Assembly (NCBI RefSeq): GCF_003258945.1
Contig: NZ_QLIX01000002.1
Coordinates: forward strand, 843 to 64,842
Source: Roseicella frigidaeris
GTDB taxonomy: Bacteria > Pseudomonadota > Alphaproteobacteria > Acetobacterales > Acetobacteraceae
Direction: 5' to 3'
Length of the DNA stretch: 64,000 bases
Shown: in pieces, positions 40,399 to 54,307 of the stretch
Numbering within the stretch: position 1 is the first letter of the stretch
Layout of the letters: each line of letters begins with the position of its first letter
The notes under the pieces: model-generated
Database searches by the model: none
Told to the model about the DNA's origin: nothing
The model's input: only the letters and a program-made list of their open reading frames with translations
Position numbers and translations under genes: made by a program

Positions 40399-40700
40399 GC
40401 CATCGCCCCCAACCGCCCTGGCCCCGGCCCGGCCCCGTCCGCGGGGACGGGTTCCGGTCTGGTTTGCACTTGAGTCGCGCTCCCGCAATCGCCATGACAG
40501 GGTGAAGGGGAGGGGCGGCAGATCAGTACGATTTTGCACCTGTTTGCTCGACATGCGCTTTCGTGATTGAGTATTGTACACAAGCGTGCGATGCTCCTGC
40601 CTCTGCTTCGCGATACCGCGATCGGGTGGGGCCGGCGTGGTGCACGTGGGTCGAGGCCGATCTCCTTCGGCGCCGGTCGCAAGCCTTTACCGGAGGCCTC
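40399..40700. other. Intergenic region before the HWE kinase
   Basis: CCCGTCC-GCGG-GGACGGG (40434-40451) forms a 7-bp hairpin 35 bases after the export gene stop and may end its transcript. From 40515 to 40600 the DNA is AT-richer (GATTTTGCACC, GATTGAGTATTGTACAC) and probably holds the promoter of the signalling operon. No gene is seen. Confidence 0.45.
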
Positions 40701-42377
40701 ATGTCCAGCCCCTGGCGCGCAGGCGACCGTTCCGGCGTCCTTTGGTCCAACCCATCCGAGGCCCCCGGCGGTCCGGTAGCCATGTCTGCCTTCATGATCG
40801 CCTTCGCCGCGGCGGCCGGCCTGCTCGCCCTGGTGTTCACGGTGCCCATCACCGGCACGCTCGAAGCCTCCGGGGTGGCCGGCCTGCCCCTCCTCTGGGG
40901 CGGCCTCGCCGTCGCCGCGCCGGCCCTACTCGGCGCCGGCGTGCTGCACCGGGCCCATCACCGCGAGAAGGCGCTGCGGCGCGAGAAGGCGGCGCTCGAG
41001 GAGCGGCTGCACACGGTCGCCGACCTGTCGCATGCCTTCGAGCTGAGCGCCGTCATGCTGCGCGACGCCGATGGCACCATCCGCCACTGGTCGGCCGGCT
41101 GCGAGCGGCTCTTCGGCTTCACCGCCGCCGAGGCGATCGGGCAGCGCTCGCACGAGCTGCTCGGCACGCGCTTCCCCGATGGCGGCCGGCGGGCGGCGCA
41201 GGACAGCCTGCTCGCCAGCGGCGAGTGGCAGGGCGAGTTGCGGCACCGCCGCCGCGGCGGCCAGCCGGTCGTCGTCGCGGCGCACTGGATCCTCCGCCAT
41301 GGCAGCCATGCCGGCGCCGTGGTCGAGGTGCATGCGGATGCGACCGAGCTGAAGGCGACCGAGGCGGCGCTGCGCGCCGGCGAGGCGCGGCTGCGCCTGG
41401 CCCAGGAGGTTGCCGGCATCGGCACCTGGGAATGGGACCCGGAGGCCGACCGCTTCCTCTGGTCGCCCGAGCATTCCACCCTTTTCGGCGGCGCCTCGGC
41501 GGCGATGCCGGTGACCCTCGAGGGCTTCCTCGGCCTGGTGCATCCGGATGACCGGGCGGCGGTCCGCGCCGGCGCCTGGCGGGCGCTTGAGAGCGGCGAG
41601 TACGAGGCGGAGTTCCGCATCCTGCGCCCGGGCCGCGATGGCGGCGAGGAGATGCGCTGGCTGCTCGGCCGCGGCCGCCGCATGCCCGGCCCGGCCGGGC
41701 GGGTCGGGCCGATCCTCGGCGTGCATATGGACTTCACCGCCCGCAAGGAGGCGGAGGAGCGGCAATCCCTGCTGATGCGGGAGGTCGACCACCGGGCGAA
41801 GAACGCGCTCGCCGTGGTGCAGGCGGTGCTGCGCCTGACCAAGGCCGACAACGCGCAGGAATTCGGCCGCGCCATCGAGGGCCGGGTGGCGGCGCTCGCC
41901 CGGGCGCAGACCCTGCTGACCGAGAGCCGCTGGATGGGCGCGGACCTCAACGCCATGCTGCGCGGCGAGCTCGATCCCTTCCTCGGCAATGCCGGCAGCA
42001 CGCGGGTGATCCTGGACGGGCCGCCGCTCACCGTCTCGCCCATGGCGGCGCAGCCGCTCTCGATGACCCTGCACGAGCTCGCCACCAACGCGGCGAAGTA
42101 TGGCAGTCTCTCCGCCCCCGGCGGCACGCTCGAGCTGCGGTGGGCGGTCGATCCGGCGCAGGACCGGCTGCGGCTGCGCTGGGCCGAATCCGGCGGGCCG
42201 CCGGTCGCTGGGCCGCCGCGCGGGCGCGGCTTCGGCTCGCGCGTCATCCGCACCACCATCCACGACCAGCTTGGCGGCGAGGTGACTTTCGAGTGGCAAC
42301 CGACCGGTCTCGTCTGTCTTATGGAATTGCCGCTCGGCCGCGTCGTGACCCGGGCGGAGAGCGGACGCCGCGCCTGA
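40701..42377 (+). CDS. Membrane-bound PAS-PAS HWE-family histidine kinase
   Basis: 558 residues: two membrane helices (about 29-52 and 60-82), a short coiled coil, and two PAS domains (VMLRDADGTIRHWSAGCERLFGF; IGTWEWDPEADRFLWS). The HWE kinase core has its phosphoacceptor H364 in MREVDHRAKNALAVV, followed by LHELATNAAKYGSLS and GFGSRVIRTTI. HWE kinases are typical of alphaproteobacteria and often signal to single-domain or stress regulators. GGAGGCCTC supports the ATG. It lies 10 bases before a REC-PAS gene, so the two probably form a pair. Confidence 0.92.
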   Translation: MSSPWRAGDRSGVLWSNPSEAPGGPVAMSAFMIAFAAAAGLLALVFTVPITGTLEASGVAGLPLLWGGLAVAAPALLGAGVLHRAHHREKALRREKAALEERLHTVADLSHAFELSAVMLRDADGTIRHWSAGCERLFGFTAAEAIGQRSHELLGTRFPDGGRRAAQDSLLASGEWQGELRHRRRGGQPVVVAAHWILRHGSHAGAVVEVHADATELKATEAALRAGEARLRLAQEVAGIGTWEWDPEADRFLWSPEHSTLFGGASAAMPVTLEGFLGLVHPDDRAAVRAGAWRALESGEYEAEFRILRPGRDGGEEMRWLLGRGRRMPGPAGRVGPILGVHMDFTARKEAEERQSLLMREVDHRAKNALAVVQAVLRLTKADNAQEFGRAIEGRVAALARAQTLLTESRWMGADLNAMLRGELDPFLGNAGSTRVILDGPPLTVSPMAAQPLSMTLHELATNAAKYGSLSAPGGTLELRWAVDPAQDRLRLRWAESGGPPVAGPPRGRGFGSRVIRTTIHDQLGGEVTFEWQPTGLVCLMELPLGRVVTRAESGRRA

Positions 42378-42387
42378 AGGTCCTGCC

Positions 42388-43203
42388 ATGGCGATGATCC
42401 TGATCCTCGATGACCGCGCGACGAACCGCAGCATCTATGCCCGGCTCGCAACGGTGATCGAGGACGATGTCTCGGTGGAGGTGTTCGGGGACCCGCTCGA
42501 CGCGCTGGAATGGCTCGAGGGCAACCGCATCGACCTGGTGATCACCGACTTCAAGATGCCTGGGATGGACGGGGCCGAGTTCACGCGGCGGCTGCGGGCC
42601 CTGCCGGGCAAGTCGGCGGTGCCGGTGCTGGTGGTGACGGCGCATGACGACCGCGGCTTCCGCGTCCGCGCCCTCGATGCCGGCGCGACCGATTTCCTGC
42701 AGAGCCCGATCGACCATTTCGAGCTGGTGACCCGGGCCCGCAACCTGCTGGCCCTCGGCCGCCGTGGCCAGTCGGCGCCGCCGGCCGCGGGCCTCGCCGA
42801 GCCGCTGCCGGCGCCGCCCCTGCCGCCCGGCGCCGACCCGTTGCAGACGCATGGCACCGACGGCCTCGCCCGCATCCTCGACAGCCTGCCCGCCCAGGTG
42901 AGCGCGATCGACCGCGAGGGCCGGTGCATCTATGCCAATGCCGCGATGGCGGCGGCGCTCGGCGCCCGGCCGCGGGAGCTGGTCGGGGTCGGCGCGGCGG
43001 CGCTGTTCGGGCCGCAACGCGCCGAGCGGAGCCGGGCCGCCGACCTGGCGGTGTTGGCGACCGGCGCCTCGCTGCCGCCCTATCGCGAGGAAGGGGCGGG
43101 CGGCCAGCTGCTCACCACCAAGGCCCCGCTGCGCGACGCCAGCGGCGAGATCACCGCGGTGATCACCACCTCGATTCCGCTGGGGCCGGAGCCGGAGCGG
43201 TGA
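42388..43203 (+). CDS. Response regulator with REC and PAS domains, in the position next to rpfC
   Basis: 271 residues. The receiver (about 3-125) has acid residues DD, phosphoacceptor D54 in ITDFKMPGMDG, Thr in VVTAHDD and a late SPID in place of the usual K-P (the Lys is replaced by Ser: LQSPID). Its sequence style (ILDDRATNRSIYARL, DFKMPG) resembles the RpfG receiver. A Pro-rich linker follows, then a PAS domain (LDSLPAQVSAIDREGRCIYANAAMAAALG). No HD-GYP, GGDEF or DNA-binding output is present. Its stop overlaps the downstream sensor start by four bases (GTGA). Confidence 0.88.
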   Translation: MAMILILDDRATNRSIYARLATVIEDDVSVEVFGDPLDALEWLEGNRIDLVITDFKMPGMDGAEFTRRLRALPGKSAVPVLVVTAHDDRGFRVRALDAGATDFLQSPIDHFELVTRARNLLALGRRGQSAPPAAGLAEPLPAPPLPPGADPLQTHGTDGLARILDSLPAQVSAIDREGRCIYANAAMAAALGARPRELVGVGAAALFGPQRAERSRAADLAVLATGASLPPYREEGAGGQLLTTKAPLRDASGEITAVITTSIPLGPEPER

Positions 43204-45692
43204 GCGGCCCCGCCGCGTTGCGCGCGCCCATCCTCGGCCGGGCGCGCGGCCGCGTCGGGACGGAACAGGAGATGAGCGTCAACCGGCTCGCCTTCACCGC
43301 CGTCTTCGCCCTCTACCTGCCCACCCTCGGCGCGCCCATCCTCAGGATGGGCCTGCCCCTGCTGGTGGTCTGGGCGCTGTGCGGGCTGTTCATCGCGCTG
43401 CACATCCGGCTGCGGCCGGAGCCGAACACGCCGCGGCGGGCCTTCGCCCTGCTGCTCGACATCGGGGTGCTCTCCGGCTTCCTGCATCTTGGCGGCGCCC
43501 ATGCCGCGCCCTTCTTCCCGGTCTATCTCTGGATCGCGCTCGGCAACGGCTTCCGCTTCGGCCCGGCCTGGCTGCTGGCCGGCATGCTGGCCTTCATCGC
43601 CGGCTTCGGCGCCGTGGCCGTGACCACGCCCTATTGGCAGGCGATCCCGGAGCTTGCCATCGGGCTGCTGGTCGGGCCGGTGATCCTCGCCCTCTATGCC
43701 GGGCGGCTGATCCGCAAGCTCTCCCAGGCGCGGCTCGCCGCCGAGCAGGCGAGCGAGGCGAAGACCCGCTTCCTGGCGGGGGTGAGCCATGAGTTGCGGA
43801 CGCCGCTGAACGCCATCATCGGAATGGGAGGCCTCCTCCGCGGAACGGCGCTGGACCGCGAGCAGCAGGAGATGGCACAGACCATCGATCTGGCGGCGCG
43901 CGGCCTGCTCGGGGAGATCAACGGGCTGCTGGACATATCGAGGATCGAGGCCGGCGCGACCGTGATGCGTTCCGAGAGCGTGGACCTGCCCTCCCTGCTC
44001 GCCGAGGCGCGGGGGCTGCTGCTGGCCCAGGCGCGGGAGAAGGGGCTGCGGCTGCGGCTGCACGTCACCCCGCGCACGCCGACCCGCATCCTGTCCGATG
44101 CCTCGATCCTGCGCGACCTGCTGCTGAACCTCGGCGGCAACGCGGTGAAATTCACCACCGTGGGCAGCGTCACCATCGCGCTCGACGCCGAGCCGGGGGA
44201 GGGCGATGCCCTGCACCTGCGGCTCGAGGTCAGCGACACCGGCATCGGCATCAACGAGTCGGCGCAGGCGCGCATCTTCGAGCGCTTCGCCCAGGCCGAC
44301 GAGACGATCATGGGCCGCTTCGGCGGCACCGGACTCGGCCTCGCCCTGTGCAAGGGGCTGGTGGAGCTGGCCGGCGGCACGATCGGCGTGCGCAGCCAGC
44401 CCGGCGCCGGCAGCTGCTTCCATGTCCTGTTCCCGGTGCGCCGCGACCCGGGCCTGGCCGAATCGCCGCCGCCGCCGCAGGCGCTGCTGCTCGGCCCCGA
44501 TGCGGCGGCGCTCGCCGGGCTCGCGGCGGCGCTCGCCGGCCTCGGGGTGGCGCCGCTCACCAGGACCGTGACACCGGCGACCTTCGCGGCGCTCTGGGGC
44601 GGCGATGGCCCGTCGCCGCGGATGCTGGTCGCCTGCATCGGCGAGGGGGCGGCGCCGGCGACCGAGGAGATCGCGGCCGGGCTGCGCGGCACCGGGCCGA
44701 CGGCGGAGATGCTGGTCTTCGCCCTCGGCGGCGAGGCCGGCCCCGGCCTGCCGGACCAGCTTCGCCGGCGGCAGGTGGCGAGCATCCTGCCGGCCGAGCC
44801 GGGCGCCGCGGACTGGGCCATGCCGCTCGCCCTGGCCGGGGCGCTGCTGCCGCGCCTGCGGATGGCGGCGCCGTCGCCCGGCGGGGCGGCGGTCGCGCCG
44901 ATGCGGGTGCTGGTCGCCGACGACAACCGGGTGAACCGCCTCGTGGTGCAGAAGATCCTCGACCGCGAGGGCCACCGGGTGACGCTGGTCTCGGACGGGG
45001 AGGCGGCGCTCGATGCCCTGGAGGCGGGCGAGTTCGACCTCGTCCTGATGGACCTGAACATGCCGGGGACGGACGGCATCACGGCCACCAAGCTGTATCG
45101 CTTCAACGCCCTCGGCCGGCCGCATGTGCCGATCCTCGGCCTGACGGCGGATGCGACGCCGGAGGCGGCGCAGCGCTGCCGCGAGGCCGGCATGGATGGC
45201 TGCCTGGTGAAGCCGATCGAGCCGGCGCAGCTCGCCGCCGCGGTCGCCGCCTATGCGCCCGACGCGGCGGGGCCGCCGGAGGCGGGGGCGCCGGCTCCGG
45301 CCGTGACCCGGATCGAGGCGCATCCGCGCTTCCGGCCCTCGCTGCCGCCGGCGCTGGACCCGGCGGTGACGGCGGATCTCATCGCCCTTGGCGGCCGCCG
45401 CTTCGCCGCCGACCTGGCGCGCGACTTCGTCACCGATGCGAGCGATCTGCTCGACGGCATCGAGGCGGCGCTGGACCAGGGCGATGTGGCGCGCTTCCGC
45501 GCCGCGGCGCATGGGCTGCGCAGCAGCGCGGCGAATATCGGCGCGCGCGGCCTCTTCGCCCTCGGCAGCGCGGCCGAGGCGCTGCCCGCCATCGAGGTGG
45601 CGAAGGCTGGGCGGCAGCAGGTGGCGCTGATGCGCGAGGAGCTCGAACGGGTCCGTGCCGCCGGCCAGGCCGCGGCGGACGGCGCGGCCTAG
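43200..45692 (+). CDS. rpfC: RpfC-like hybrid sensor kinase (probable DSF receptor)
   Basis: 830 residues with the RpfC layout: a short N-terminal cytoplasmic segment, about five membrane helices (32-170), HisKA with H197 (FLAGVSHELRTPLN), HATPase, a degenerate middle receiver-like region, a true receiver (from ~568, VLVADDNRVNRLVVQ, D618 in MDLNMPG) and a C-terminal Hpt domain with H771 (AAHGLRSSAANIG). The regions TTPYWQAIPELAIGLLVGP and ATKLYRFNALG...GLTADATPEA recall Xanthomonas RpfC. The GTG start is preferred over ATG 43272 because the extra 24 residues fit the sensor N-terminus. An rpfF homologue lies downstream. Confidence 0.85.
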   Translation: MSGPAALRAPILGRARGRVGTEQEMSVNRLAFTAVFALYLPTLGAPILRMGLPLLVVWALCGLFIALHIRLRPEPNTPRRAFALLLDIGVLSGFLHLGGAHAAPFFPVYLWIALGNGFRFGPAWLLAGMLAFIAGFGAVAVTTPYWQAIPELAIGLLVGPVILALYAGRLIRKLSQARLAAEQASEAKTRFLAGVSHELRTPLNAIIGMGGLLRGTALDREQQEMAQTIDLAARGLLGEINGLLDISRIEAGATVMRSESVDLPSLLAEARGLLLAQAREKGLRLRLHVTPRTPTRILSDASILRDLLLNLGGNAVKFTTVGSVTIALDAEPGEGDALHLRLEVSDTGIGINESAQARIFERFAQADETIMGRFGGTGLGLALCKGLVELAGGTIGVRSQPGAGSCFHVLFPVRRDPGLAESPPPPQALLLGPDAAALAGLAAALAGLGVAPLTRTVTPATFAALWGGDGPSPRMLVACIGEGAAPATEEIAAGLRGTGPTAEMLVFALGGEAGPGLPDQLRRRQVASILPAEPGAADWAMPLALAGALLPRLRMAAPSPGGAAVAPMRVLVADDNRVNRLVVQKILDREGHRVTLVSDGEAALDALEAGEFDLVLMDLNMPGTDGITATKLYRFNALGRPHVPILGLTADATPEAAQRCREAGMDGCLVKPIEPAQLAAAVAAYAPDAAGPPEAGAPAPAVTRIEAHPRFRPSLPPALDPAVTADLIALGGRRFAADLARDFVTDASDLLDGIEAALDQGDVARFRAAAHGLRSSAANIGARGLFALGSAAEALPAIEVAKAGRQQVALMREELERVRAAGQAAADGAA

Positions 45693-46118
45693 GGGCCGGT
45701 GCCGTTCGGGGGGCAACGCTCGAAGGGGTGACGGTGCCCCGGGGCGTGGTCGCCCGATCCGCTGCGCCGACCCGGACGGGATTCTGGGCCGGCGTCCCGG
45801 CCCATGCGGCGGATCGGCGACCTGCTGCGACCAGGGGCCGTGCCGGATCGGCGGTGGGCAGGAGCGCCTGGAAGCCGGCCTTGGCGCCACTGGCATGATC
45901 GGGATCGCCGCGAACGCGGCAGGCCCAGGTCCCCTCGGGCCGGGGCCGGTGGGGGCGCCGGCGGCGAAGCGCCAGGGGCGATCTCTGCTGGCTTTGGGCC
46001 GGCGGCAGGCCGCGGGGCGCGGCGGCTCGCCTGGAGGAGGCCGTTCTGGCCTCGCGGCGTCACAACGATGGCAGGCGTCCGACGTGGTCCCGGGTCGCCT
46101 CGGGCGCTGGTGCGTCGT
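45693..46118. other. GC-rich gap between rpfC-like and rpfF-like genes
   Basis: 426 bases between convergent stops. The sequence is GC-rich, with many short inverted repeats such as CCCCGGGGCG and CGGGCCGGGGCCG. Reading frames here have no ribosome sites or family signatures. I see no gene. Confidence 0.45.
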
Positions 46119-47036
46119 TCAGGCGAGGCCGATGCGGCGATCCTGCGCGGCGCAGAGGCGCGCCATCCGTCGCAGGTCCTGCTCGGAGAGACGCAGCGCC
46201 GCCTCGGCCCAGACCTCGACCACCTCGCGCAGCTCCTGCAGGGTCACCGGGTCGACCTTGCGGCGGGCGCGGTACAGGGCCTGCTGCGCATTGTGGAAGC
46301 GGCCGCTCTTGTCGAGATGCGCGAGCAGCGCCGCCTCGCCCTCGCCATCCTCGGCCAGGACATCGACCAGGCCCATGGCCTGCATCTCCTCGGCGGTGTG
46401 GATGGTGCCGGAGAGGATGAGCTTCTCCGCGGCGGCGCGGCCGATGCGGCGGGAGAGGAAGCTGTAGGCGCCCATGCCCGGGAAGAGGTTGAACAGCACC
46501 TCGGGCAGGCCGAATTTGGCGCTCCGCTCGGCGACGATGAGGTCGTGCGCCAGGGCGCATTCGAAGCCGCCGCCGAGCGCATCGCCCTGGACCAGCGCCA
46601 CGGTGATCATCGGCAGGTCGAGCGCGGTGTGGTTGCGGTGGATGGCCTCCACCGCCGCATGGCCATAGCGGACGAGGCCGTCGCGGTCGCCGGCGGCGAT
46701 GAGCTGGCGGAACAGGCCGAGATCGCCGCCGAGGTTGAAGATCCCGGGGATGGCGGAGCCGCAGACGAACCAGCGCGGCGGCGGCAGCGGCGCGTCCTTG
46801 GCGAAGAGCTCGGGGATGGCGGCGTGCATGGCGGCGATGTCGCGCAGCAGGGCCGGGCTGAAGCAGGGCCGCTCGGTCGGGCGCAGCCGGCACCAGTAGA
46901 CCCCGCGCTCGGCGTCATAGGCGGTATCGAGCGTCTCATGGGTCGCGGCGGGGCGGCCGGAATGGCTGGCATTGGCCAGGACCTGCTGGGCGAGGGCGGG
47001 GAAGCCGGCGGCCATCGGGCTGCGGACAAAGGTCAT
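46119..47036 (-). CDS. rpfF: RpfF-like DSF synthase (crotonase family)
   Basis: A 305-residue crotonase-fold enzyme with the specific RpfF signature: RPCFSPALLRDI, AIPGIFNLGGDLGLFRQLI, GDALGGGFECALAHDLIVAE and FGLPEVLFNLFPGMGAYSF. Glu159 and Glu179 match the two catalytic glutamates of Xanthomonas RpfF (E141, E161; same 20-residue spacing). That enzyme is a dehydratase and thioesterase on 3-hydroxyacyl-ACP, making the cis-2-unsaturated fatty acid signal. The ATG at 47036 is preferred to a TTG at 47090. It is convergent with the rpfC-like gene. An ordinary enoyl-CoA hydratase is unlikely given the FNLGGDL and LFPGMGAYS blocks. Confidence 0.92.
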   Translation of the reverse strand: MTFVRSPMAAGFPALAQQVLANASHSGRPAATHETLDTAYDAERGVYWCRLRPTERPCFSPALLRDIAAMHAAIPELFAKDAPLPPPRWFVCGSAIPGIFNLGGDLGLFRQLIAAGDRDGLVRYGHAAVEAIHRNHTALDLPMITVALVQGDALGGGFECALAHDLIVAERSAKFGLPEVLFNLFPGMGAYSFLSRRIGRAAAEKLILSGTIHTAEEMQAMGLVDVLAEDGEGEAALLAHLDKSGRFHNAQQALYRARRKVDPVTLQELREVVEVWAEAALRLSEQDLRRMARLCAAQDRRIGLA

Positions 47037-47302
47037 GATCAGGGCCTCGTCGTTGAAGCACGTCGGCGCCGGGATCGGCGTCCTGATCAAACCTTAGCGC
47101 CTCACGAATATGTTATACAATAGTCGATGCGCGCACAGGTTGCTTTTCTCCGGTTTGGTTCGGAAAGCGTATCCGAATTGCCACAGGGGGTCAGCCGACC
47201 CTGCGGAGAGTACAGGCCGCTCATTTTCTATCAATGGGAGAATGCCTCGGCCAGGCGCCGACGCCGCCGGCCCTGGGCCACCTCCGGCGCGTGGCGTCGG
47301 AC

Positions 47303-47620
47303 TCAGTCCTCGTCGAGGAGGCTGGCAAGCTTCAGCGCTACGCCCTTCGAGCCCTCGATCCGCAATCGCCCGGTCGAGAAGGCGAGCATCGGGCTGAGCC
47401 GGCCGGCCATCAGCTTGCCCAGGTTCTCGGCCGACATGCGCAGCACCGTATCCGCCTCCGCCGTGTCGTCCACCTGCTGGATCACGGCCTCGGGCCCGGT
47501 CGCATCGAGCAGCACGCTCTCGCCGAGATCGGTGAGGTCGAAGCGCATCCGGTAGCCAAGCTGGCGGAGCAGGGGCGCCCGCTCCTGCATCGCCGCCATC
47601 AAGGTCGCTGCATCGGTCAT
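47303..47620 (-). CDS. SCP2 sterol-binding domain protein
   Basis: A 105-residue single-domain protein: MRFDLTDLGESVLLDATG, ADTVLRMSAENLGKLMAGRLSPMLAFSTGRLRIEGSKGVALKLASLL. This is the SCP2 fold, a hydrophobic cavity that carries fatty acyl or sterol ligands. AAGGAAGG lies upstream of the ATG. It is divergent from the FadL-type porin across 151 bases, so the shared region may be coregulated. A role as cytosolic acyl carrier for the uptake operon is likely. Confidence 0.9.
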   Translation of the reverse strand: MTDAATLMAAMQERAPLLRQLGYRMRFDLTDLGESVLLDATGPEAVIQQVDDTAEADTVLRMSAENLGKLMAGRLSPMLAFSTGRLRIEGSKGVALKLASLLDED

Positions 47621-47771
47621 GGGCGTTTTGCCTTCCTTGGCATTCAGTAATATCCTATACAGGCATAGTGTCCCCGTTGCGTCACCCGGATGCCGGGTGG
47701 CACGCCCCATCGCCGGCCGAGGGGCGCGAGCAAAGGGCGAAACGAATCGCGTGGGGAGGGCGCCGAGCGGC

Positions 47772-49115
47772 ATGACCAGCACGCGGTCCCCTGGCCTCGC
47801 CTCCATCGCCGCCGGCCTCCTCCTCGGCAGCCTGCCCCTGGCCGGCCCTGCCGGCGCCACCGGCTTCGAAGTGCGCGAGCAGAGCGCCATCGGGCAGGGC
47901 GCGGCCCAGGCCGGCGTCGCGGCGCGCGACGACGATCCCTCCATGCTGTTCTTCAACCCGGCCTCCATGGCCTCCCTGCCGGGAGTCCAGAGCGCCGTGG
48001 TCGGCTCCGGCATCTTCCCCCATGCGGCGATGACGGAGGGCATGGCGAGCCGCAACGCCCTCGTCGGCGGATCGCGCGTCACCGGCAGCCTCGGCGGCGA
48101 TATCGGCGTCGATGCCTTCCTCCCGGCCGTCTACAACACCGTCCAACTGGCAACGGACTGGCATCTCGGCCTCGGCGTCACCAGCCCCTGGGGACTCATC
48201 AGCAAGAGCCCGGAGGACGGCATCGCCCGCTACCATGCGCTCACCTCCACGCTGCGGACGGTGAACATCACGCCGGCCCTGTCCTGGCAGGCCACGCCCA
48301 GCCTCGCCCTCGGCGCCGGGCTGCAGGTCCAGTACGCCACCGCGCGCCTCTCGAGCGCCATGGATTTCGGTGCCATCGGCGCGGCGCAGCGGATCCCGGG
48401 CTTCGTGCCGGGCGCGCGGGACGGGCGCTCCACCCTCTCGGGCGACGACACGGCGCTCGGCTGGCAGGTCGGCGCGCAATGGCAGCCGCTGCCGGGCACC
48501 CGGCTCGGGCTGGCCTTCCGCTCCGCCGTCTTCCACACGCTCGGCGGCGACGCCCTCTTCGAAGGCGTCCCCTCGGCGCTCGCGCCGGCCTTCGCCAAGA
48601 CCGGCGGCAAGGCGAAGCTGACGACGCCGGAGACGGCGACGCTCGGCCTGCGGCAGCGCCTCGACGACCGCTGGACCCTGCTCGGCGGGCTGGAATGGAC
48701 CAACTGGTCCCGCTTCCGCGACCTCACCATCAGCTTCGCCAATGGCCGCCCGCCCTCGGTCACCGAGGAGCGCTGGCGGGACAGCGTCTTCGTCTCGCTC
48801 GGCGGCGAGTATCGCTGGAGCGAGGCGCTCACGCTGCGCGCCGGCTTCGCCTACGACCAGACGCCGGTGCCGGAGGCCACCCGCACGCCGCGGATCCCGG
48901 ACAACGACCGCTACTGGCTCTCGGTCGGCGCCAGCTACGAGGTCTGGCGGAACGTCACGCTGAGCGCCGCCTACACCCATATCTTCGCGCCTGGCGCCAC
49001 GGTGAACCTGCAGGATCCCGGGCCGGGCAACACCAACCTGTTCCGCACCAACCTGGTCGGCACCTACCAGGTCTCCGTCGACATCGTGACCGCCCAGCTC
49101 CGCTTCGCCTTCTGA
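47772..49115 (+). CDS. FadL/OmpP1/TodX-family outer-membrane porin
   Basis: 447 residues with a signal peptide ending GATG, then the family N-terminus GFEVREQSAIGQGAAQAGVAARDDDPSMLFFNPASMASL (NPA motif intact), alternating beta-strand pattern, and a C-terminal aromatic strand ending QLRFAF. It imports long-chain fatty acids or other hydrophobic molecules across the outer membrane. It is the first gene of a five-gene operon with an acyl-CoA synthetase, thiolase, FadN-type enzyme and acyl-CoA dehydrogenase. GGGAGG precedes the start. Confidence 0.93.
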   Translation: MTSTRSPGLASIAAGLLLGSLPLAGPAGATGFEVREQSAIGQGAAQAGVAARDDDPSMLFFNPASMASLPGVQSAVVGSGIFPHAAMTEGMASRNALVGGSRVTGSLGGDIGVDAFLPAVYNTVQLATDWHLGLGVTSPWGLISKSPEDGIARYHALTSTLRTVNITPALSWQATPSLALGAGLQVQYATARLSSAMDFGAIGAAQRIPGFVPGARDGRSTLSGDDTALGWQVGAQWQPLPGTRLGLAFRSAVFHTLGGDALFEGVPSALAPAFAKTGGKAKLTTPETATLGLRQRLDDRWTLLGGLEWTNWSRFRDLTISFANGRPPSVTEERWRDSVFVSLGGEYRWSEALTLRAGFAYDQTPVPEATRTPRIPDNDRYWLSVGASYEVWRNVTLSAAYTHIFAPGATVNLQDPGPGNTNLFRTNLVGTYQVSVDIVTAQLRFAF

Positions 49116-49120
49116 CAGGG

Positions 49121-50836
49121 ATGGCCCGCCGCATGGTCATGCATTCCACCGCGGCCTCTCCCCGTTGCCACAGCGCCTATCCGCCCGGCATCGCCTGGGA
49201 CATGGCGCTGCCGCCGGAGACGCTGGTCGAGATCTTCGAGGCCTCCGCGCGCCGCTTCGCCGACCGTCCCTGCCTCGACTTCCTCGGCCGGCGCTGGCGC
49301 TATGCCGAGGTCGGGGCGCTGGTCGAGCGCGCCGCCGCCGGGCTGCAGCGGCTCGGCGCCGGGCCGGGAACCCGCATCGGCCTCTGCCTGCCGAACGGCC
49401 CGCACTACGTCATCGCCTTCTTCGCCGCCCTCCGCTGCGGCGCCACGGTGGTGAACTGCAACCCGCTCTACAGCACCGCCGAACTGGCGGCGCAGCTCGC
49501 CGATTCCGACACGCGCATCCTGGTCGCGCCCGATCTCGCGCCGATCCTCGGGCGGGTGCTGCGGCTGCGCCAGGACGGCGTGCTGGCGCAGGTGATCGTC
49601 TGCCCCTTCGCCGAGGCGCTGCCGCCGCTCAAGGGCCTGCTCTTCCGCACCCTGCGCCGGCGCGCCATCGTCGCGATCCCGGCGTTGCCGGGCCTGCTGC
49701 GCTGGGAGGCGCTGCTGCAGGGGCCGCCGCTGACCCAGCCCCGCCCGCGGCCCGAGGATGTCGCCGTGCTGCAATACACCGGCGGCACCACCGGCACGCC
49801 CAAGGGGGCCATGCTGACCCATGCCAACCTGGCCGCGAATCTGCGGCAGGTGCAGGCCTGGTCGCCGCAATGCCGCCCCGGCGAGGAGCGCACTCTCGCC
49901 GTGCTGCCCTTCTTCCACGTCTTCGCGCTCACCGCGGTGCTCGGCGCCTCGATCGGCTGGGGCGCCGAGCTGGTGATGCTGCCGCGCTTCGAGCCGAAGC
50001 AGCTCATCGCCACGCTGCGGCGAAGGCGCCCGACGGTCTTCCACGGCGTGCCGACGCTGTTCCGGGCGGTGATCGAGCAGGGGGCGACGCGCCGGGACCT
50101 CGCCTCGGTGCGCATCTGCATCTCGGGCGGCGCGCCGCTGCCGGCCGAGGTGAAGCGGGAATTCGAGGCGCGCAGCGGCTGCCGCCTGGTCGAGGGCTAC
50201 GGCCTGACCGAGGCCTCGCCGGTCTGCTTCTGCAACCCGCTGGAGGGCGAGGCGCCGGAGGGCAGCATCGGCCTGCCGCTGCCCGGCATCCGGGCCGAGA
50301 TCCGCGCCCTCGACGACCCGGGCCGTGCCCTGCCGCCGGGCGAGAAGGGCGAGCTCTGCGTCGCCGGGCCGAACGTCATGGCCGGCTACTGGAACCGTCC
50401 GGAGGAGACCGCGAACGCCATCGATGCCGGCGGCTTCCTGCACACCGGCGATGTCGGGATCATGGATGCCGCGGGCTACGTCACCCTGGTCGACCGCATC
50501 AAGGACCTCATCATCTGCAGCGGCTACAACGTCTATCCGCGCGCCATCGAGGAGGCGCTCTACGCCCATCCGGAGGTGGCCGCGGCGACGGTGGTGGGCC
50601 AGCCCGACCCCTATCGGGGCGAGAGCCCGGCCGCCTTCGTGCAACTGCGCCCGGGCAGCGCGTTGACGCCGGAGAGCCTGCGCGCCTTCCTGAAGGACCG
50701 TCTCTCGGCGATCGAGATGCCGAAGCTGATCGAGATCCGGGCCGAGTTGCCGCGCACGCCGATCGGCAAGCTCTCCAAGAAGGAGCTGAAGGCGGAACTG
50801 CTGCAGCGGGCCGCCGACCGGCCGGGGCGCGGCTGA
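49121..50836 (+). CDS. Long-chain acyl-CoA synthetase (FadD/RpfB-like)
   Basis: A 571-residue adenylate-forming enzyme: YTGGTTGTPKGAML (P-loop-like A3 motif), SGGAPLPAEVKREFEA, EGYGLTEASPVCFCNP, HTGDVGIMDAAGYVTLVDRIKDLIICSGYNVYP and the catalytic Lys in PRTPIGKLSKKEL. It couples fatty acids to CoA using ATP. Five bases separate it from the porin gene. In Xanthomonas the neighbouring rpfB encodes such a ligase and clears DSF, so a similar side role is possible here. Start uncertain among ATGs at 49121, 49133 and 49139. Confidence 0.93.
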   Translation: MARRMVMHSTAASPRCHSAYPPGIAWDMALPPETLVEIFEASARRFADRPCLDFLGRRWRYAEVGALVERAAAGLQRLGAGPGTRIGLCLPNGPHYVIAFFAALRCGATVVNCNPLYSTAELAAQLADSDTRILVAPDLAPILGRVLRLRQDGVLAQVIVCPFAEALPPLKGLLFRTLRRRAIVAIPALPGLLRWEALLQGPPLTQPRPRPEDVAVLQYTGGTTGTPKGAMLTHANLAANLRQVQAWSPQCRPGEERTLAVLPFFHVFALTAVLGASIGWGAELVMLPRFEPKQLIATLRRRRPTVFHGVPTLFRAVIEQGATRRDLASVRICISGGAPLPAEVKREFEARSGCRLVEGYGLTEASPVCFCNPLEGEAPEGSIGLPLPGIRAEIRALDDPGRALPPGEKGELCVAGPNVMAGYWNRPEETANAIDAGGFLHTGDVGIMDAAGYVTLVDRIKDLIICSGYNVYPRAIEEALYAHPEVAAATVVGQPDPYRGESPAAFVQLRPGSALTPESLRAFLKDRLSAIEMPKLIEIRAELPRTPIGKLSKKELKAELLQRAADRPGRG

Positions 50837-50864
50837 GACCCGGCGCGGCCGGAGAGGAGCGAGC

Positions 50865-52001
50865 ATGACCGATGTGGTGATCGCGGCCTATCGCCGCTCC
50901 CCCTTCCAGCCGGCGCACAAGGGCGCGCTGACCCGGCTGCGGCCGGACGAGATGGCGGCGCAGGTGGTCCGCGCCCTGGTCGATGAGACGGGCATCGACC
51001 CCGCCACCATCGAGGATGTGGTGCTCGGCTGCGCCTTCCCCGAGGGCGAGCAGGGGCTGAACGCGGCGAAGCTGGTCGCCTTCATCGCCGGCCTGCCCGA
51101 GGGCGTCGCCGGCGCCACGGTGAACCGCTTCTGCGGCTCCTCCATGCAGGCGGTGCACCAGGCGGCGGGCGCCATCCATCTCGGCGCCGGCGAGGCCTTC
51201 CTCTGCTGCGGCGTCGAGAGCATGAGCCGCGTGCCGATGATGGGCTTCAACCCGATGCCGCATCCCGGCCTCGCCGCCCGCTATCCCCAGGCCTATGTCT
51301 CCATGGGCGAGACGGCGGAGAACGTCGCCCGGCTGCACCAGGTGGGGCGGGCCGAGCAGGAGGCCTTCGCCCTGTCCAGCCACCGCAAGGCCGCGGCGGC
51401 GCAACGCGAGGGGCGCCTCGAAGCCGAGATCGTACCCGTGGAGGTGGGCGGCCAGCGCGTCGCGCAGGATGGCTGCATCCGCGCCGATGCCTCGCCCGAG
51501 GGGCTCGCCGCGCTGAAGCCGGCCTTCCGCCAGGACGGCACGGTGACCGCCGGCACCGCCTCGCCGCTCACCGATGGCGCCGTGGCGCTGCTGGTCTGCT
51601 CGGGCGATTACGCCCGGACGCATGGGCTCGCCCCGCTCGCCCGGGTGCGGAGCATCGCGGTCGCCGGCTGCGGGCCGGAGGTGATGGGCATGGGGCCGGT
51701 CGGCGCCACGCGGAAGGCGCTGGCGCGGGCCGGCATCACCGCGCGCGAGCTCGACGTGGTGGAGCTGAACGAGGCCTTCGCCAGCCAGGCTATCGCCTGC
51801 CTGCGCGAGCTCGGCCTCGACGAGGCCAAGGTGAACCTCGATGGCGGCGCCATCGCGCTCGGCCATCCGCTGGGCGCCACCGGCGCCCGCATCACCGGCA
51901 AGGCGGCGCAGCTCCTGCGGCGCGAGGGCGGGCGCTACGCCCTGGCGACGCAATGCATCGGCGGCGGCCAGGGCATCGCCACCGTGCTGGAGGCGCCGTG
52001 A
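50865..52001 (+). CDS. fadA: Acetyl-CoA acyltransferase (3-ketoacyl-CoA thiolase)
   Basis: A 378-residue thiolase with all catalytic residues: nucleophile C90 in NRFCGSSMQAVHQ, His in GHPLGATGAR and the final Cys in QCIGGGQG. It cleaves 3-ketoacyl-CoA to acetyl-CoA and a shortened acyl-CoA in beta-oxidation. GGAGAGGAG lies upstream of the ATG. The stop overlaps the FadN-type gene start (TGATG), indicating coupled synthesis of the two subunits. Confidence 0.95.
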   Translation: MTDVVIAAYRRSPFQPAHKGALTRLRPDEMAAQVVRALVDETGIDPATIEDVVLGCAFPEGEQGLNAAKLVAFIAGLPEGVAGATVNRFCGSSMQAVHQAAGAIHLGAGEAFLCCGVESMSRVPMMGFNPMPHPGLAARYPQAYVSMGETAENVARLHQVGRAEQEAFALSSHRKAAAAQREGRLEAEIVPVEVGGQRVAQDGCIRADASPEGLAALKPAFRQDGTVTAGTASPLTDGAVALLVCSGDYARTHGLAPLARVRSIAVAGCGPEVMGMGPVGATRKALARAGITARELDVVELNEAFASQAIACLRELGLDEAKVNLDGGAIALGHPLGATGARITGKAAQLLRREGGRYALATQCIGGGQGIATVLEAP

Positions 52002-54307
52002 TGGACCCGATCCGCCGCGTCGGCGTGATCGGCGCCGGGGTGATGGGCGCGGGCATCGCCGCGCAGGTGGCGAATGCCGGCATCCCGGTGGTGCTGCTCG
52101 ACATCGTGCCCGGCGCGGCCGAGGCGGCGGTCGCGCGCATGCTGAAGACCGAGCCCGCCCCCTTCATGCACCGGGCGGCGGCGCGGCTGGTCGCCTGCGG
52201 CGATCTCGACCGCGACCTGGCGCTGCTCGCCGAGTGCGACTGGATCTGCGAGGCGATCGTCGAGCAGGCCGAGGCCAAGCGCGCCCTCTATGCCCGGCTG
52301 CAGCCGGTGCGGCGGCCGGGCGCGATCCTCTCCTCCAACACCTCGACCATCCCGCTCGCGGCCCTGACCGAGGGCATGGCGGCAGAGGCGGCGGCGCAGT
52401 TCCTGGTCACGCATTTCTTCAACCCGCCGCGCTACATGCGGCTGCTGGAGCTGGTGCAGGGACCGGCGACGCGGCCGGAGGTGGCGGCGCGCATCGCCGA
52501 TTTCGCCGATCGCGGCCTCGGCAAGACGGTGATCGCCTGCCGCGACCGGCCCGGCTTCATCGCCAACCGCATCGGCGGCCATTGGCTGCAGAGCGCGGTG
52601 AACCATGCGGTCGATCTCGGCCTCACGGTGGAGGAGGCGGATGCCGTGATGGGGCGGCCCTTCGGCATCCCGAAGACCGGCGTCTTCGGCCTGCTCGACC
52701 TCGTCGGCCTCGACCTCATGCCGCATGTCGCGGCCAGCATGAAGGCGGCGCTGCCGGCGGACGACCCCTATGTGCGGGCGATGCGCGAGCATCCGGTGAT
52801 CCTCGGCATGATCGCCGAGGGCCGCACCGGGCGGAAGGGCAAGGGCGGCTTCTATGCGCGCGAGCGCGGCCCGGGCGGCGAGCGGCTGAAGCGCACGGTC
52901 GATCTCGCCACCGGCCGCTACCGCGACAGCGAGAAGCCGGTGCTGGAGAGCCTGGCGCTGCGCGACCTGCGGGCGCTCGCCGGGCATCCCGATCGCGGCG
53001 GGCGCTATGCCCGCGCCGTGCTGCTCGACCTGCTCGGCTATGCCGCCGCGCTGGTGCCGGAGGTGGCCGAGGGCATCGCTGATGTCGATGCGGCGATGCG
53101 CCTTGGCTACAACTGGCGCTACGGACCCTTCGAGCTGATCGACCGGCTCGGCGCCGGCTGGCTGCGGGCGGCGCTGGCCGCGGCGGGGCGGCCGGTGCCG
53201 CCGCTGCTCGAGCGGGTGGGGGAGGGCGGCTTCTACCGCGTCGAGGCCGGGCGGCTGGAAGCCTTCGGCCTGGACGGCGCCTATCATCCGGTGCCGCGGC
53301 CGGAGGGGGTGCTGCTGCTCGCCGACATCAAGCGCCGCTCGACGCCGCTGGCGCGCAACGGCTCGGCCTCGCTCTGGGAGATCGGCGAGGGCGTCGCCTG
53401 CCTCGAATTCCACAGCAAGATGAACGCCCTCGATCCCGGCACGCTGGAGATGCTCGGCACATCCGTGGCGATGGGCAGGAAGGGCGCCTTCCGGGCGCTG
53501 GTGATCCACACCGAGGGCGAGCAATTCTCGGTCGGCGCCAATCTCGGCCTCGCCCTCTTCGCCGCCAACATCGCCGCCTGGGGCGAGATCGAGGGGCTGA
53601 TCGAGCAGGGGCAGAAGGCGATGCGGGCGCTGCGCGACGCGCCCTTCCCGGTGGTCGGCGCCCCCTCCGGCATGGCGCTCGGCGGCGGCTGCGAGATCCT
53701 GCTGCATTGCGACGCGGTGCAGGCGCATGCCGAGAGCTATATCGGCCTGGTCGAGGCCGGGGTCGGGCTGATCCCCGGCTGGGGCGGCTGCACCGGCCTG
53801 CTGCGCCGCTGGGCCGAGGATCCGCGCGCGCCGCAGGGGCCGATGCCGCCGGTCGCCAAGGCCTTCGAGGCGATCTCGACCGCGCAGGTGGCGAAATCCG
53901 CCTTTGAGGCGCGCGAGATGCGGCTGCTGCGCCCGACCGACGGCATCACCTTCAACCGCGACCGGGTGCTGGCGGAGGCCAAGGCGCGCGCCCTGGCCCT
54001 GGCCGAGGGCTACGCCCCGCCCCCGGCGCCGGCGCCGCTGCACCTGCCGGGGGCGAGCGGGCGCGTCGCCCTCGGCCTCGCGGTGCGGCAGCAGGCGGCG
54101 CTCGGCCGGGCGACGCCGCATGACCTCGTAGTCTGCGACCATCTGGCCGAGACGCTGACCGGCGGCGGCAGGGACCCGGTCGATGCGGTGACCGAGGCCG
54201 AGCTGCACGCCCTGGAGCGGCGCAATTTCATGGCGCTGCTGCGCCTGCCGGCGACGCTGGCGCGGGTCGAGCACATGCTCGAGACCGGCCGGCCCCTGCG
54301 GAATTAG
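52001..54307 (+). CDS. fadN: 3-hydroxyacyl-CoA dehydrogenase/enoyl-CoA hydratase (FadN-type fusion)
   Basis: 768 residues. An N-terminal NAD-binding hydroxyacyl-CoA dehydrogenase domain comes first (VGVIGAGVMGAGIAAQVANAG, NTSTIPLAAL, FFNPPRYMRLLELV), then its C-terminal domains, and finally an enoyl-CoA hydratase part (CLEFHSKMNALDPG, GAPSGMALGGGCEILLHCD). This order is the reverse of classical FadB and matches Bacillus FadN. It catalyses the two middle steps of beta-oxidation. It is coupled to the thiolase before it and lies five bases ahead of the acyl-CoA dehydrogenase. Confidence 0.93.
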   Translation: MDPIRRVGVIGAGVMGAGIAAQVANAGIPVVLLDIVPGAAEAAVARMLKTEPAPFMHRAAARLVACGDLDRDLALLAECDWICEAIVEQAEAKRALYARLQPVRRPGAILSSNTSTIPLAALTEGMAAEAAAQFLVTHFFNPPRYMRLLELVQGPATRPEVAARIADFADRGLGKTVIACRDRPGFIANRIGGHWLQSAVNHAVDLGLTVEEADAVMGRPFGIPKTGVFGLLDLVGLDLMPHVAASMKAALPADDPYVRAMREHPVILGMIAEGRTGRKGKGGFYARERGPGGERLKRTVDLATGRYRDSEKPVLESLALRDLRALAGHPDRGGRYARAVLLDLLGYAAALVPEVAEGIADVDAAMRLGYNWRYGPFELIDRLGAGWLRAALAAAGRPVPPLLERVGEGGFYRVEAGRLEAFGLDGAYHPVPRPEGVLLLADIKRRSTPLARNGSASLWEIGEGVACLEFHSKMNALDPGTLEMLGTSVAMGRKGAFRALVIHTEGEQFSVGANLGLALFAANIAAWGEIEGLIEQGQKAMRALRDAPFPVVGAPSGMALGGGCEILLHCDAVQAHAESYIGLVEAGVGLIPGWGGCTGLLRRWAEDPRAPQGPMPPVAKAFEAISTAQVAKSAFEAREMRLLRPTDGITFNRDRVLAEAKARALALAEGYAPPPAPAPLHLPGASGRVALGLAVRQQAALGRATPHDLVVCDHLAETLTGGGRDPVDAVTEAELHALERRNFMALLRLPATLARVEHMLETGRPLRN

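What the first reader, a model, noticed from the sequence alone, without database searches (positions are those of the whole stretch)
43200..47036. Probable DSF quorum-sensing pair (RpfC-like sensor with RpfF-like synthase) in an alphaproteobacterium
The protein at 46119-47036 carries the RpfF-specific blocks FNLGGDL and FGLPEVLF.LFPGMGAYS and both catalytic glutamates at the spacing known from Xanthomonas RpfF. The convergent gene encodes the full RpfC-type chain: about five membrane helices, HisKA, HATPase, receiver and Hpt. DSF systems are best known from Xanthomonadales and Burkholderia; in this lineage the arrangement seems little described. That last point is from general knowledge, not a search.
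Basis: partly seen in the sequence, partly recalled or inferred. Interest (0 to 1): 0.85.

Follow-up and report, generated by a model that had tools for sequence, protein, structure and literature searches.

The report
DSF-type quorum-sensing pair, rewired output
A bacterium related to Roseicella and Roseomonas carries relatives of the fatty-acid "quorum-sensing" synthase and sensor known from Xanthomonas, but the protein that should pass the message on lacks its usual output part and sits beside a separate sensor kinase instead.

Summary
46119-47036 (-) encodes an RpfF-family enzyme: its twelve best PDB fold matches are all RpfF-family synthases, and it scores 196-203 bits against them versus 72 for the next crotonase. 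Convergent 43200-45692 (+) encodes an RpfC-lineage hybrid kinase: about five hydrophobic segments, HisKA, HATPase, receiver, Hpt.

The REC-PAS protein at 42388-43203 overlaps the start of rpfC and is, by reciprocal best match, the RpfG receiver, without HD-GYP. In relatives a regulator with this receiver carries HD-GYP (xanthomonad-type loci), GGDEF-EAL (51 of 91 fetched loci of the window's family), a histidine kinase (15 of 31 other alphaproteobacterial loci) or, in the window's clade, PAS alone beside an HWE kinase (11 of 91). None of the 91 showed HD-GYP; the own genome has no HD_5 match. Of the five DSF-hook residues of RpfC, this clade keeps two throughout; Asp17 is Gly.

So: an Rpf synthase-sensor pair, frequent in this family, with a changed output and sensor hook. 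Ligand, phosphotransfer and HWE coupling are inferred. New variant of a known kind.

The parts
46119..47036 (-). RpfF-family DSF synthase candidate, 305 aa, ATG 47036
   Evidence: PRK08788 367.6 bits (cut-off 177); PDB RpfF-family chains 196-203 bits; AF2 pLDDT 90.9 and top 12 PDB fold hits all RpfF-family; tree
43200..45692 (+). RpfC-lineage hybrid histidine kinase, 830 aa, GTG 43200; expected phospho-sites H197, D618, H771 (from motif positions)
   Evidence: Pfam HisKA, HATPase_c, Response_reg, Hpt; hydrophobic segments and motifs; receiver matches RpfC receiver 3m6m_D at 92.1 bits; tree
43251..43274 (+). Equivalent of the DSF-binding hook of RpfC just before the first hydrophobic segment: RVGTEQEM (read as Xcc positions 15-22: R15 kept, D17 to G, S18 to T, E19 kept, Q22 to M)
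   Evidence: (PMC5391125 passages)
42388..43203 (+). RpfG-derived response regulator reduced to REC-PAS (271 aa); stop overlaps the rpfC start
   Evidence: Pfam Response_reg and PAS_4; reciprocal best match with RpfG receivers; AF2 model pLDDT 86.7, residues 130-152 under 50
40563..42377 (+). PAS-PAS-HWE histidine kinase ending 10 bp before the REC-PAS gene; start codon not settled
   Evidence: Pfam HWE_HK 77 bits, PAS; neighbourhoods; gap; best relatives in G063 and G290 are the genes at the same place
47303..47674 (-). SCP-2 sterol-carrier-like protein beside rpfF (start not settled); found beside rpfF only in the closest genus; not part of the core
   Evidence: Pfam SCP2; neighbourhoods
47772..54307 (+). 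FadL-type porin, AMP-binding acyl-CoA ligase, thiolase and FadB-type enzyme beside rpfF; as a block only in the closest genus; possible signal turnover, not core
   Evidence: Pfam; neighbourhoods

Best explanation
This is an Rpf-type cell-cell signalling locus whose output has been exchanged. RpfF makes a DSF-family cis-2-unsaturated fatty acid from acyl-ACP (inferred from family and fold). The signal, or a relative of it, is felt by the short N-terminal hook and membrane helices of RpfC, which relays phosphate His-Asp-His (domains shown, relay inferred). The Hpt passes phosphate to the receiver of the neighbouring REC-PAS protein, which descends from the RpfG receiver (shown by reciprocal best match and synteny; phosphotransfer inferred). 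With no HD-GYP, GGDEF or EAL domain, REC-PAS should not turn over cyclic di-GMP itself; it most likely acts by binding a partner, and the best candidate is the co-encoded PAS-PAS-HWE kinase, so that the quorum signal feeds a second kinase instead of cyclic di-GMP. How likely: RpfF family member about 0.95; RpfC-RpfG-lineage pathway about 0.9; product a DSF-family fatty acid about 0.75; REC-PAS acting through the HWE kinase about 0.4.
For: RpfF identity. Calibration of the NCBIfam RpfF cut-off of 550 bits (window 220.3): of 8 RpfF-family proteins from fetched loci, 1 reached it (L218, 580.2); L049 471.3, L220 356.4, L212 236.4, L025 204.4, L028 193.5, L226 from an RpfR-type locus 181.9, L051 164.8; all 8 and the window passed PRK08788. 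RpfC. RpfG receiver: the receiver of an RpfG with HD-GYP (L218) finds the window's REC-PAS first among 38 matches in the own genome, 98.4 versus 58.4 bits; the window's receiver finds the rpfC-linked regulator first in 7 of 7 genomes (93.7-174.3 bits; second match at most 72.5 in six, 103.6 in G048). Linkage: HWE, REC-PAS and rpfC in a row with a 10 bp gap and a GTGA overlap. Rows labelled REC-PAS plus HWE: 13 with the window, the label requiring both; 12 of them (L050 left out) plus L023 form one clade in the RpfF tree (SH-aLRT 97, quick method) beside GGDEF-EAL carriers. Output modules. No HD_5 match in the own genome.
Against: No chemistry or phosphotransfer is shown. In the window's clade (9 rows) the hook keeps S/T18 and E19, but D17 is Gly and Q22 is Met in all and R15 is kept in 2; R15, D17, S18, E19 and Q22 are reported essential for DSF sensing in Xcc. 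The receivers of this regulator in alphaproteobacteria lack the canonical receiver lysine (Ser in 13 of 13 REC-PAS rows; Ser 14 and Thr 1 of 15 REC-PAS-kinase rows; 48 of 56 GGDEF-EAL rows read Ser, Thr or Ala and the other 8, outside the pattern, show S, T or M by eye; Lys in 9 of 10 HD-GYP rows), so a normal phospho-switch is uncertain. The PAS of REC-PAS and the PAS region of the HWE kinase are not detectably similar. The RpfC tree leaves the REC-PAS rows in two groups of 9 and 4 without firm resolution. Such kinases are abundant here (13 matches at 1e-25 in the own genome, 32 in G063), so adjacency may mean less. L115 has a longer REC-PAS regulator and no HWE gene called beside it. Eight of the 91 family loci have rpfF with no RpfC called within 7 kb.
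Confidence: 0.6

Rival explanations
1. Ordinary DSF signalling to cyclic di-GMP: REC-PAS partners in trans with one of the genome's own GGDEF or EAL proteins, so the output is still c-di-GMP and only the fusion was lost.
For: The own genome has 6 GGDEF and 6 EAL matches; near relatives carry the same REC-PAS fused to GGDEF-EAL; in Xanthomonas RpfG binds GGDEF proteins (PMC3749722 passages).
Against: No GGDEF or EAL domain was called within 7 kb at the loci of this clade; the neighbour is an HWE kinase; the stretch between REC and PAS, similar across GGDEF-EAL relatives, is a Pro/Ala-rich, low-confidence stretch here (by eye).
Confidence: 0.25
2. The pair no longer senses DSF: RpfF still makes fatty acids, but RpfC of this clade answers to another ligand or only binds RpfF through its receiver.
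For: D17 is Gly in all 9 rows of the window's clade and R15 is kept in 2 of 9.
Against: S/T18 and E19 are kept in 13 of 13 REC-PAS rows, though the search pattern partly builds this in; the 4 rows of the Roseomonas pecuniae group have the same REC-PAS/HWE layout with RPDSEHEM; Q22 is already Met in 26 of 34 GGDEF-EAL rows and D17 is Gly in 6 of 34, so these changes are not special to the layout; the sensor data come from one species.
Confidence: 0.25
3. The synthase is an ordinary crotonase of beta-oxidation, next to a fad cluster by function.
For: FadL-type porin, acyl-CoA ligase, thiolase and FadB-type genes lie beside it.
Against: Among the 65 loci that block lies beside rpfF only in the closest genus, while RpfC is linked across the family and beyond; fold and sequence place it with RpfF, far from other crotonases; of 24 crotonase matches in the genome the second scores 52.3 bits against 676.3.
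Confidence: 0.04

Closest known systems
RpfF-RpfC-RpfG (rpfBFCG) of Xanthomonas
   Same: RpfF-family synthase convergent with a hybrid RpfC kinase of the same domain order; regulator gene upstream of rpfC with an RpfG-type receiver
   Different: Regulator has PAS instead of HD-GYP and no receiver lysine; an HWE kinase gene lies upstream; DSF hook altered; the acyl-CoA ligase gene is divergent from rpfF, not upstream in one operon
RpfF-RpfR of Burkholderia and Enterobacteriaceae
   Same: RpfF-family synthase; PAS-GGDEF-EAL occurs in the regulator of the window's relatives
   Different: RpfR has no receiver and senses the signal itself; here a phosphorelay kinase stands between; the window's protein lacks GGDEF-EAL
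RpfS of Xanthomonas (PAS_4 sensor kinase that binds DSF)
   Same: The PAS of REC-PAS matches Pfam PAS_4, the domain type reported to bind DSF in RpfS (PMC4504480, PMC5391125 passages)
   Different: No kinase domain on the same protein; no evidence of fatty-acid binding here; PAS_4 is a broad family
DspI of Pseudomonas aeruginosa
   Same: Crotonase-fold synthase of a cis-2 fatty acid in a cluster of fatty-acid genes (PMC4504480 passages)
   Different: DspI structures rank far below RpfF-family structures in the fold search (E 2e-13 and 6e-13 versus 6e-23 or better)

Membership tests
RpfF (DSF synthase) | Sequence and fold nearer to RpfF than to other crotonases | tested here: met
   tree with two PDB anchors
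RpfF (DSF synthase) | Both catalytic Glu and conserved RpfF blocks | tested here: met
   E159 in 52 of 52 and E179 in 51 of 52 aligned rows, window included; blocks present
RpfF (DSF synthase) | NCBIfam equivalog NF053515 cut-off (550 bits) | tested here: not met
   220.3 bits; 1 of 8 other RpfF-family proteins reached it, so it is narrow
RpfF (DSF synthase) | Makes cis-2-unsaturated fatty acids from 3-hydroxyacyl-ACP | not testable with these tools
   needs enzyme assay
RpfC | About five membrane helices, HisKA, HATPase, REC, Hpt | tested here: met
   (helices by a simple hydropathy scan)
RpfC | Convergent with and adjacent to rpfF | tested here: met
   relatives
RpfC | Hook residues R15, D17, S18, E19, Q22 | tested here: not met
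   window RVGTEQEM: R15, T18 and E19 kept; D17 and Q22 changed
RpfC | Binds DSF and autophosphorylates | not testable with these tools
   needs purified protein
RpfG | Receiver orthologous to RpfG receiver, gene next to rpfC | tested here: met
RpfG | HD-GYP output domain | tested here: not met
   Pfam shows REC-PAS only; no HD_5 match in the own genome
RpfR | PAS-GGDEF-EAL protein without receiver beside rpfF | tested here: not met
   window genes on the rpfC side are REC-PAS, RpfC and HWE kinase

The most novel reading that the evidence does not exclude
In Alphaproteobacteria the DSF phosphorelay has exchanged its output more than once on one conserved receiver: GGDEF-EAL, a fused histidine kinase, or, in the Roseicella-Belnapia-Roseomonas clade, a bare REC-PAS that controls a separate HWE kinase. 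In this last clade the quorum signal would have left cyclic di-GMP altogether and would run kinase to kinase, with a sensor hook tuned to a different fatty acid.
Probability: 0.3. Interest if true: 0.72.

Novelty: new variant of a known kind. Interest (0 to 1): 0.55.

Why it matters
[quoted passage not shown] Here alphaproteobacterial relatives keep the synthase and sensor but carry different machines on the receiver, giving a natural series to ask what the receiver really controls and whether this kind of quorum sensing can be cut free of cyclic di-GMP. The natural change in the hook (D17 to Gly) also makes signal specificity testable with purified proteins.

Tried and rejected
Ordinary crotonase: rejected. 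Missing the NCBIfam RpfF cut-off as proof against RpfF: rejected after calibration on 8 proteins, some of them from the same alphaproteobacterial type of locus. First start choice for rpfC, ATG 43272: dropped because it cuts off the hook region seen in many relatives; GTG 43200 preferred. RpfG elsewhere in the genome: no HD_5 match; the six general HD matches were not followed up one by one. The fad block as part of the system: beside rpfF only in the closest genus among the 65 loci, so left out of the core; acyl-CoA-ligase-like genes also lie near rpfF in L049, L218-L222 and L228 (directly upstream) and in L162, L194, L206 and L216. Shared origin of the PAS of REC-PAS and of the HWE kinase: no significant similarity. 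Promoter and terminator scan 45600-47400: nothing found. Fold search with the REC-PAS model listed receivers, some in longer regulators, and said nothing about the PAS. PAS sequence against PDB: weak matches only. One Pfam scan of the acyl-CoA ligase was run in a wrong frame and repeated. Literature: 9 searches. Papers were seen as search listings, and as passages for PMC9040811, PMC8895600, PMC4504480, PMC5391125, PMC7889782, PMC9878147, PMC3749722 and PMC10226988; none was read whole.

Dropped rows and limits: from the architecture table, 17 loci that duplicate a genome already present, and L082, L083, L084, where no long enough RpfF was called (L082 is cut at the contig end but has RpfC, REC-PAS and HWE). 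The 91 family loci come from 90 genomes; G243, a short piece, was not fetched. Of 53 non-alphaproteobacterial genomes with a match, loci of 29 were fetched. The RpfF tree used 104 rows: every second GGDEF-EAL row plus two, all rows of four other types, and a choice of the rest; L050 was left out because its rpfF reads as two pieces; the program warned of long branches and that the outgroup was not one side of a branch. The RpfC tree was a quick one without the mixture model, with a warning too. The named-genome scan used short patterns from the window protein and finds close relatives only.

Full report
What is there. The window lies in an alphaproteobacterial genome close to Roseicella (nearest named relative Roseicella sp. 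DB1501, 96% RpfF identity; lineage of Roseicella). On the minus strand, 46119-47036 is a 305-aa crotonase-fold protein. On the plus strand, converging on it with 426 bp between the stops, 43200-45692 is an 830-aa hybrid histidine kinase. Upstream on the plus strand are a 271-aa REC-PAS protein (42388-43203), whose stop overlaps the rpfC start as GTGA, and, ending 10 bp before it, a PAS-PAS-HWE kinase (40563-42377).

Is the synthase RpfF? NCBIfam PRK08788 is hit at 367.6 bits (cut-off 177). The RpfF equivalog NF053515 is hit at 220.3, under its cut-off of 550. That cut-off is narrow: of 8 RpfF-family proteins from fetched loci only L218 passes (580.2); L049, beside a REC-HD-GYP regulator, has 471.3 and a protein from an RpfR-type locus (L226) 181.9; all 8 pass PRK08788. 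By sequence, the four RpfF-family sequences in the PDB score 196-203 bits and the next crotonase 71.7. The AlphaFold2 model (mean pLDDT 90.9) has as its first 12 PDB matches only chains of 5fus (DfsA), 3m6m and 3m6n (RpfF), 7zq7 (RpF-1) and 6dgn (RpfF), E 1.4e-25 to 5.8e-23; the next is an ordinary crotonase-type protein at 2.5e-15. In an alignment of 52 rows E159 is invariant and E179 is kept in 51. In the tree of 104 rows it sits with alphaproteobacterial RpfF that are linked to rpfC. The own genome has 24 crotonase matches; the second best scores 52.3 bits.

Is the sensor RpfC? Domain order and phospho-site motifs agree. Its receiver matches the RpfC receiver 3m6m_D at 92.1 bits, the best of the receiver-only chains among the 60 listed. 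In the RpfC tree (80 rows, quick method) the alphaproteobacterial rows lie together (SH-aLRT 99), apart from all 10 rows linked to HD-GYP. Xcc RpfC binds DSF with an N-terminal 22-aa region in which R15, D17, S18, E19 and Q22 are reported essential and S18T works (PMC5391125, passages). I looked for this hook by pattern. It reads R-x-D-[ST]-E-x-x-Q in 8 of 8 HD-GYP rows and 14 of 15 REC-PAS-kinase rows where it was found. Of 34 GGDEF-EAL rows with a match, 19 read R-P-D-[ST]-E-H-E-M; D17 is kept in 27, Q22 in 1. In the window's own clade (9 of the 13 REC-PAS rows) it reads x-x-G-[ST]-E-x-E-M; the other 4, the Roseomonas pecuniae group, read RPDSEHEM. In 19 GGDEF-EAL, 2 HD-GYP and 5 rpfC-only rows the pattern was not found; a pattern search favours rows that keep S/T18 and E19, and some gene starts are uncertain.

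In Xanthomonas the regulator encoded in the same operon as rpfC is RpfG, a receiver fused to HD-GYP (PMC3749722 passages). The receiver of such a protein (L218, HD_5 and Response_reg by Pfam) finds the window's REC-PAS as best of 38 matches in the own genome, 98.4 versus 58.4 bits. The window's receiver finds the rpfC-linked regulator first in 7 of 7 genomes tested (in G048 a second receiver comes close, 103.6 against 118.3 bits). So REC-PAS is the RpfG receiver by descent, without the HD-GYP. The own genome has no HD_5 match, although it has six GGDEF and six EAL matches.

The output across relatives (Pfam check of four examples of three types). Window's family, 91 fetched loci: GGDEF-EAL regulator 51, REC-PAS plus HWE 11, RpfC or a part of it without a called regulator 12, too little sequence 9, rpfF without a called RpfC 8, HD-GYP 0. 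Other alphaproteobacterial loci, 31: REC-PAS-kinase (some called REC-kinase) 15, GGDEF-EAL regulator 4, RpfR-type 3, rpfC part only 1, neither 6, too little sequence 2. Elsewhere in the phylum, 29 loci: HD-GYP 9, RpfR-type 9, RpfC or a part of it only 11. Twelve REC-PAS rows with L023 form one clade in the RpfF tree (SH-aLRT 97) beside GGDEF-EAL carriers; in the RpfC tree the 13 rows fall into two groups, 9 and 4, without firm resolution. The simplest reading is loss of GGDEF-EAL from a REC-PAS-GGDEF-EAL ancestor and recruitment of an HWE kinase gene; neither tree can tell gain from loss by itself. In G063 and G290, which have the REC-PAS layout, the best match of the window's HWE kinase is the gene at the same place (63% over residues 148-598, 56% over 158-592); in three genomes with the GGDEF-EAL layout the best matches are G031 49% over 221-598, G020 57% over 389-601, and none at 1e-25 in G011. 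L115 shows a REC-PAS protein with further sensor-like sequence (612 aa) that ends, by eye, where an HWE kinase would begin, possibly an intermediate; described only.

An odd receiver. The lysine that receivers use to switch (role recalled) is Lys in 9 of 10 HD-GYP regulators, but Ser in 13 of 13 REC-PAS rows and Ser or Thr in 15 of 15 REC-PAS-kinase rows; of 56 GGDEF-EAL rows 48 read Ser, Thr or Ala, and the other 8, outside the pattern, show Ser, Thr or Met by eye. The phospho-acceptor Asp54 is invariant in 38 aligned regulators. Phosphorylation may be read out in an unusual way.

Mechanism. Shown: the genes, domains, descent, linkage and sequence changes. Inferred: DSF-family product, sensing by RpfC, relay to REC-PAS, action of REC-PAS on the HWE kinase. 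The PAS of REC-PAS matches PAS_4, the domain with which RpfS binds DSF (passages), so a second signal-binding site is possible but untested.

What is known. A review names two core designs, RpfC-RpfG and RpfR (PMC4504480, passages). A KEGG-based study states that alpha- and betaproteobacteria contain the pair RpfC-RpfG (PMC8895600, passages). A survey of acidophiles that included Acidiphilium, an Acetobacteraceae genus (recalled), names DSF systems in Leptospirillum and Acidithiobacillus in the passages seen (PMC9040811). A Bradyrhizobium paper treats an RpfB-like FadD (PMC10226988, abstract start and passages). Searches for DSF or RpfF with Acetobacteraceae, Roseomonas, Rhodospirillales, Alphaproteobacteria or Azospirillum listed no description of this system, and a search for RpfC with GGDEF/EAL regulators showed no alphaproteobacterial title in its 25 listed of 30. 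Only open-licence papers are held, so this is not proof of absence.

Verdict. Real, conserved, and a new variant of a known kind: an Rpf synthase-sensor pair, frequent in this family, with an exchanged output module and, in this clade, an altered hook.

Noticed in passing
L051-L081 (31 loci, mostly Aquimarina and other Flavobacteriaceae): Bacteroidota carry RpfF-family proteins (30-41% identity) with no RpfC-like gene called within 7.5 kb; the one tested, L051, passes PRK08788.
   Followed up: partly
L050 / L237 (Siccirubricoccus sp. G192), rpfF region: rpfF reads as two ORFs of 245 and 127 codons; broken gene or sequencing error. Described only.
   Followed up: no
L115:5412-7250 (-): Regulator of 612 aa that starts as REC-PAS, continues with more sensor-like sequence and stops, by eye, just where an HWE kinase would start.
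   Followed up: partly
L204, L208, L209 (alphaproteobacterial genomes G1021, G939, G1119): Alphaproteobacteria with an RpfR-type layout: rpfF beside a GGDEF-EAL protein, no receiver or RpfC called next to it.
   Followed up: no
window:37614-40398: Glycosyltransferase family 2 and a polysaccharide export protein (Poly_export, SLBB) lie directly upstream of the HWE kinase gene; also in L020 and L082. Exopolysaccharide is a classic DSF target in Xanthomonas (recalled).
   Followed up: partly
L130, L135, L141, L145, L147, L154, L156, L242: Eight family loci with rpfF but no RpfC called within 7 kb; of the five placed in the RpfF tree, L135, L145 and L154 form one clade.
   Followed up: partly
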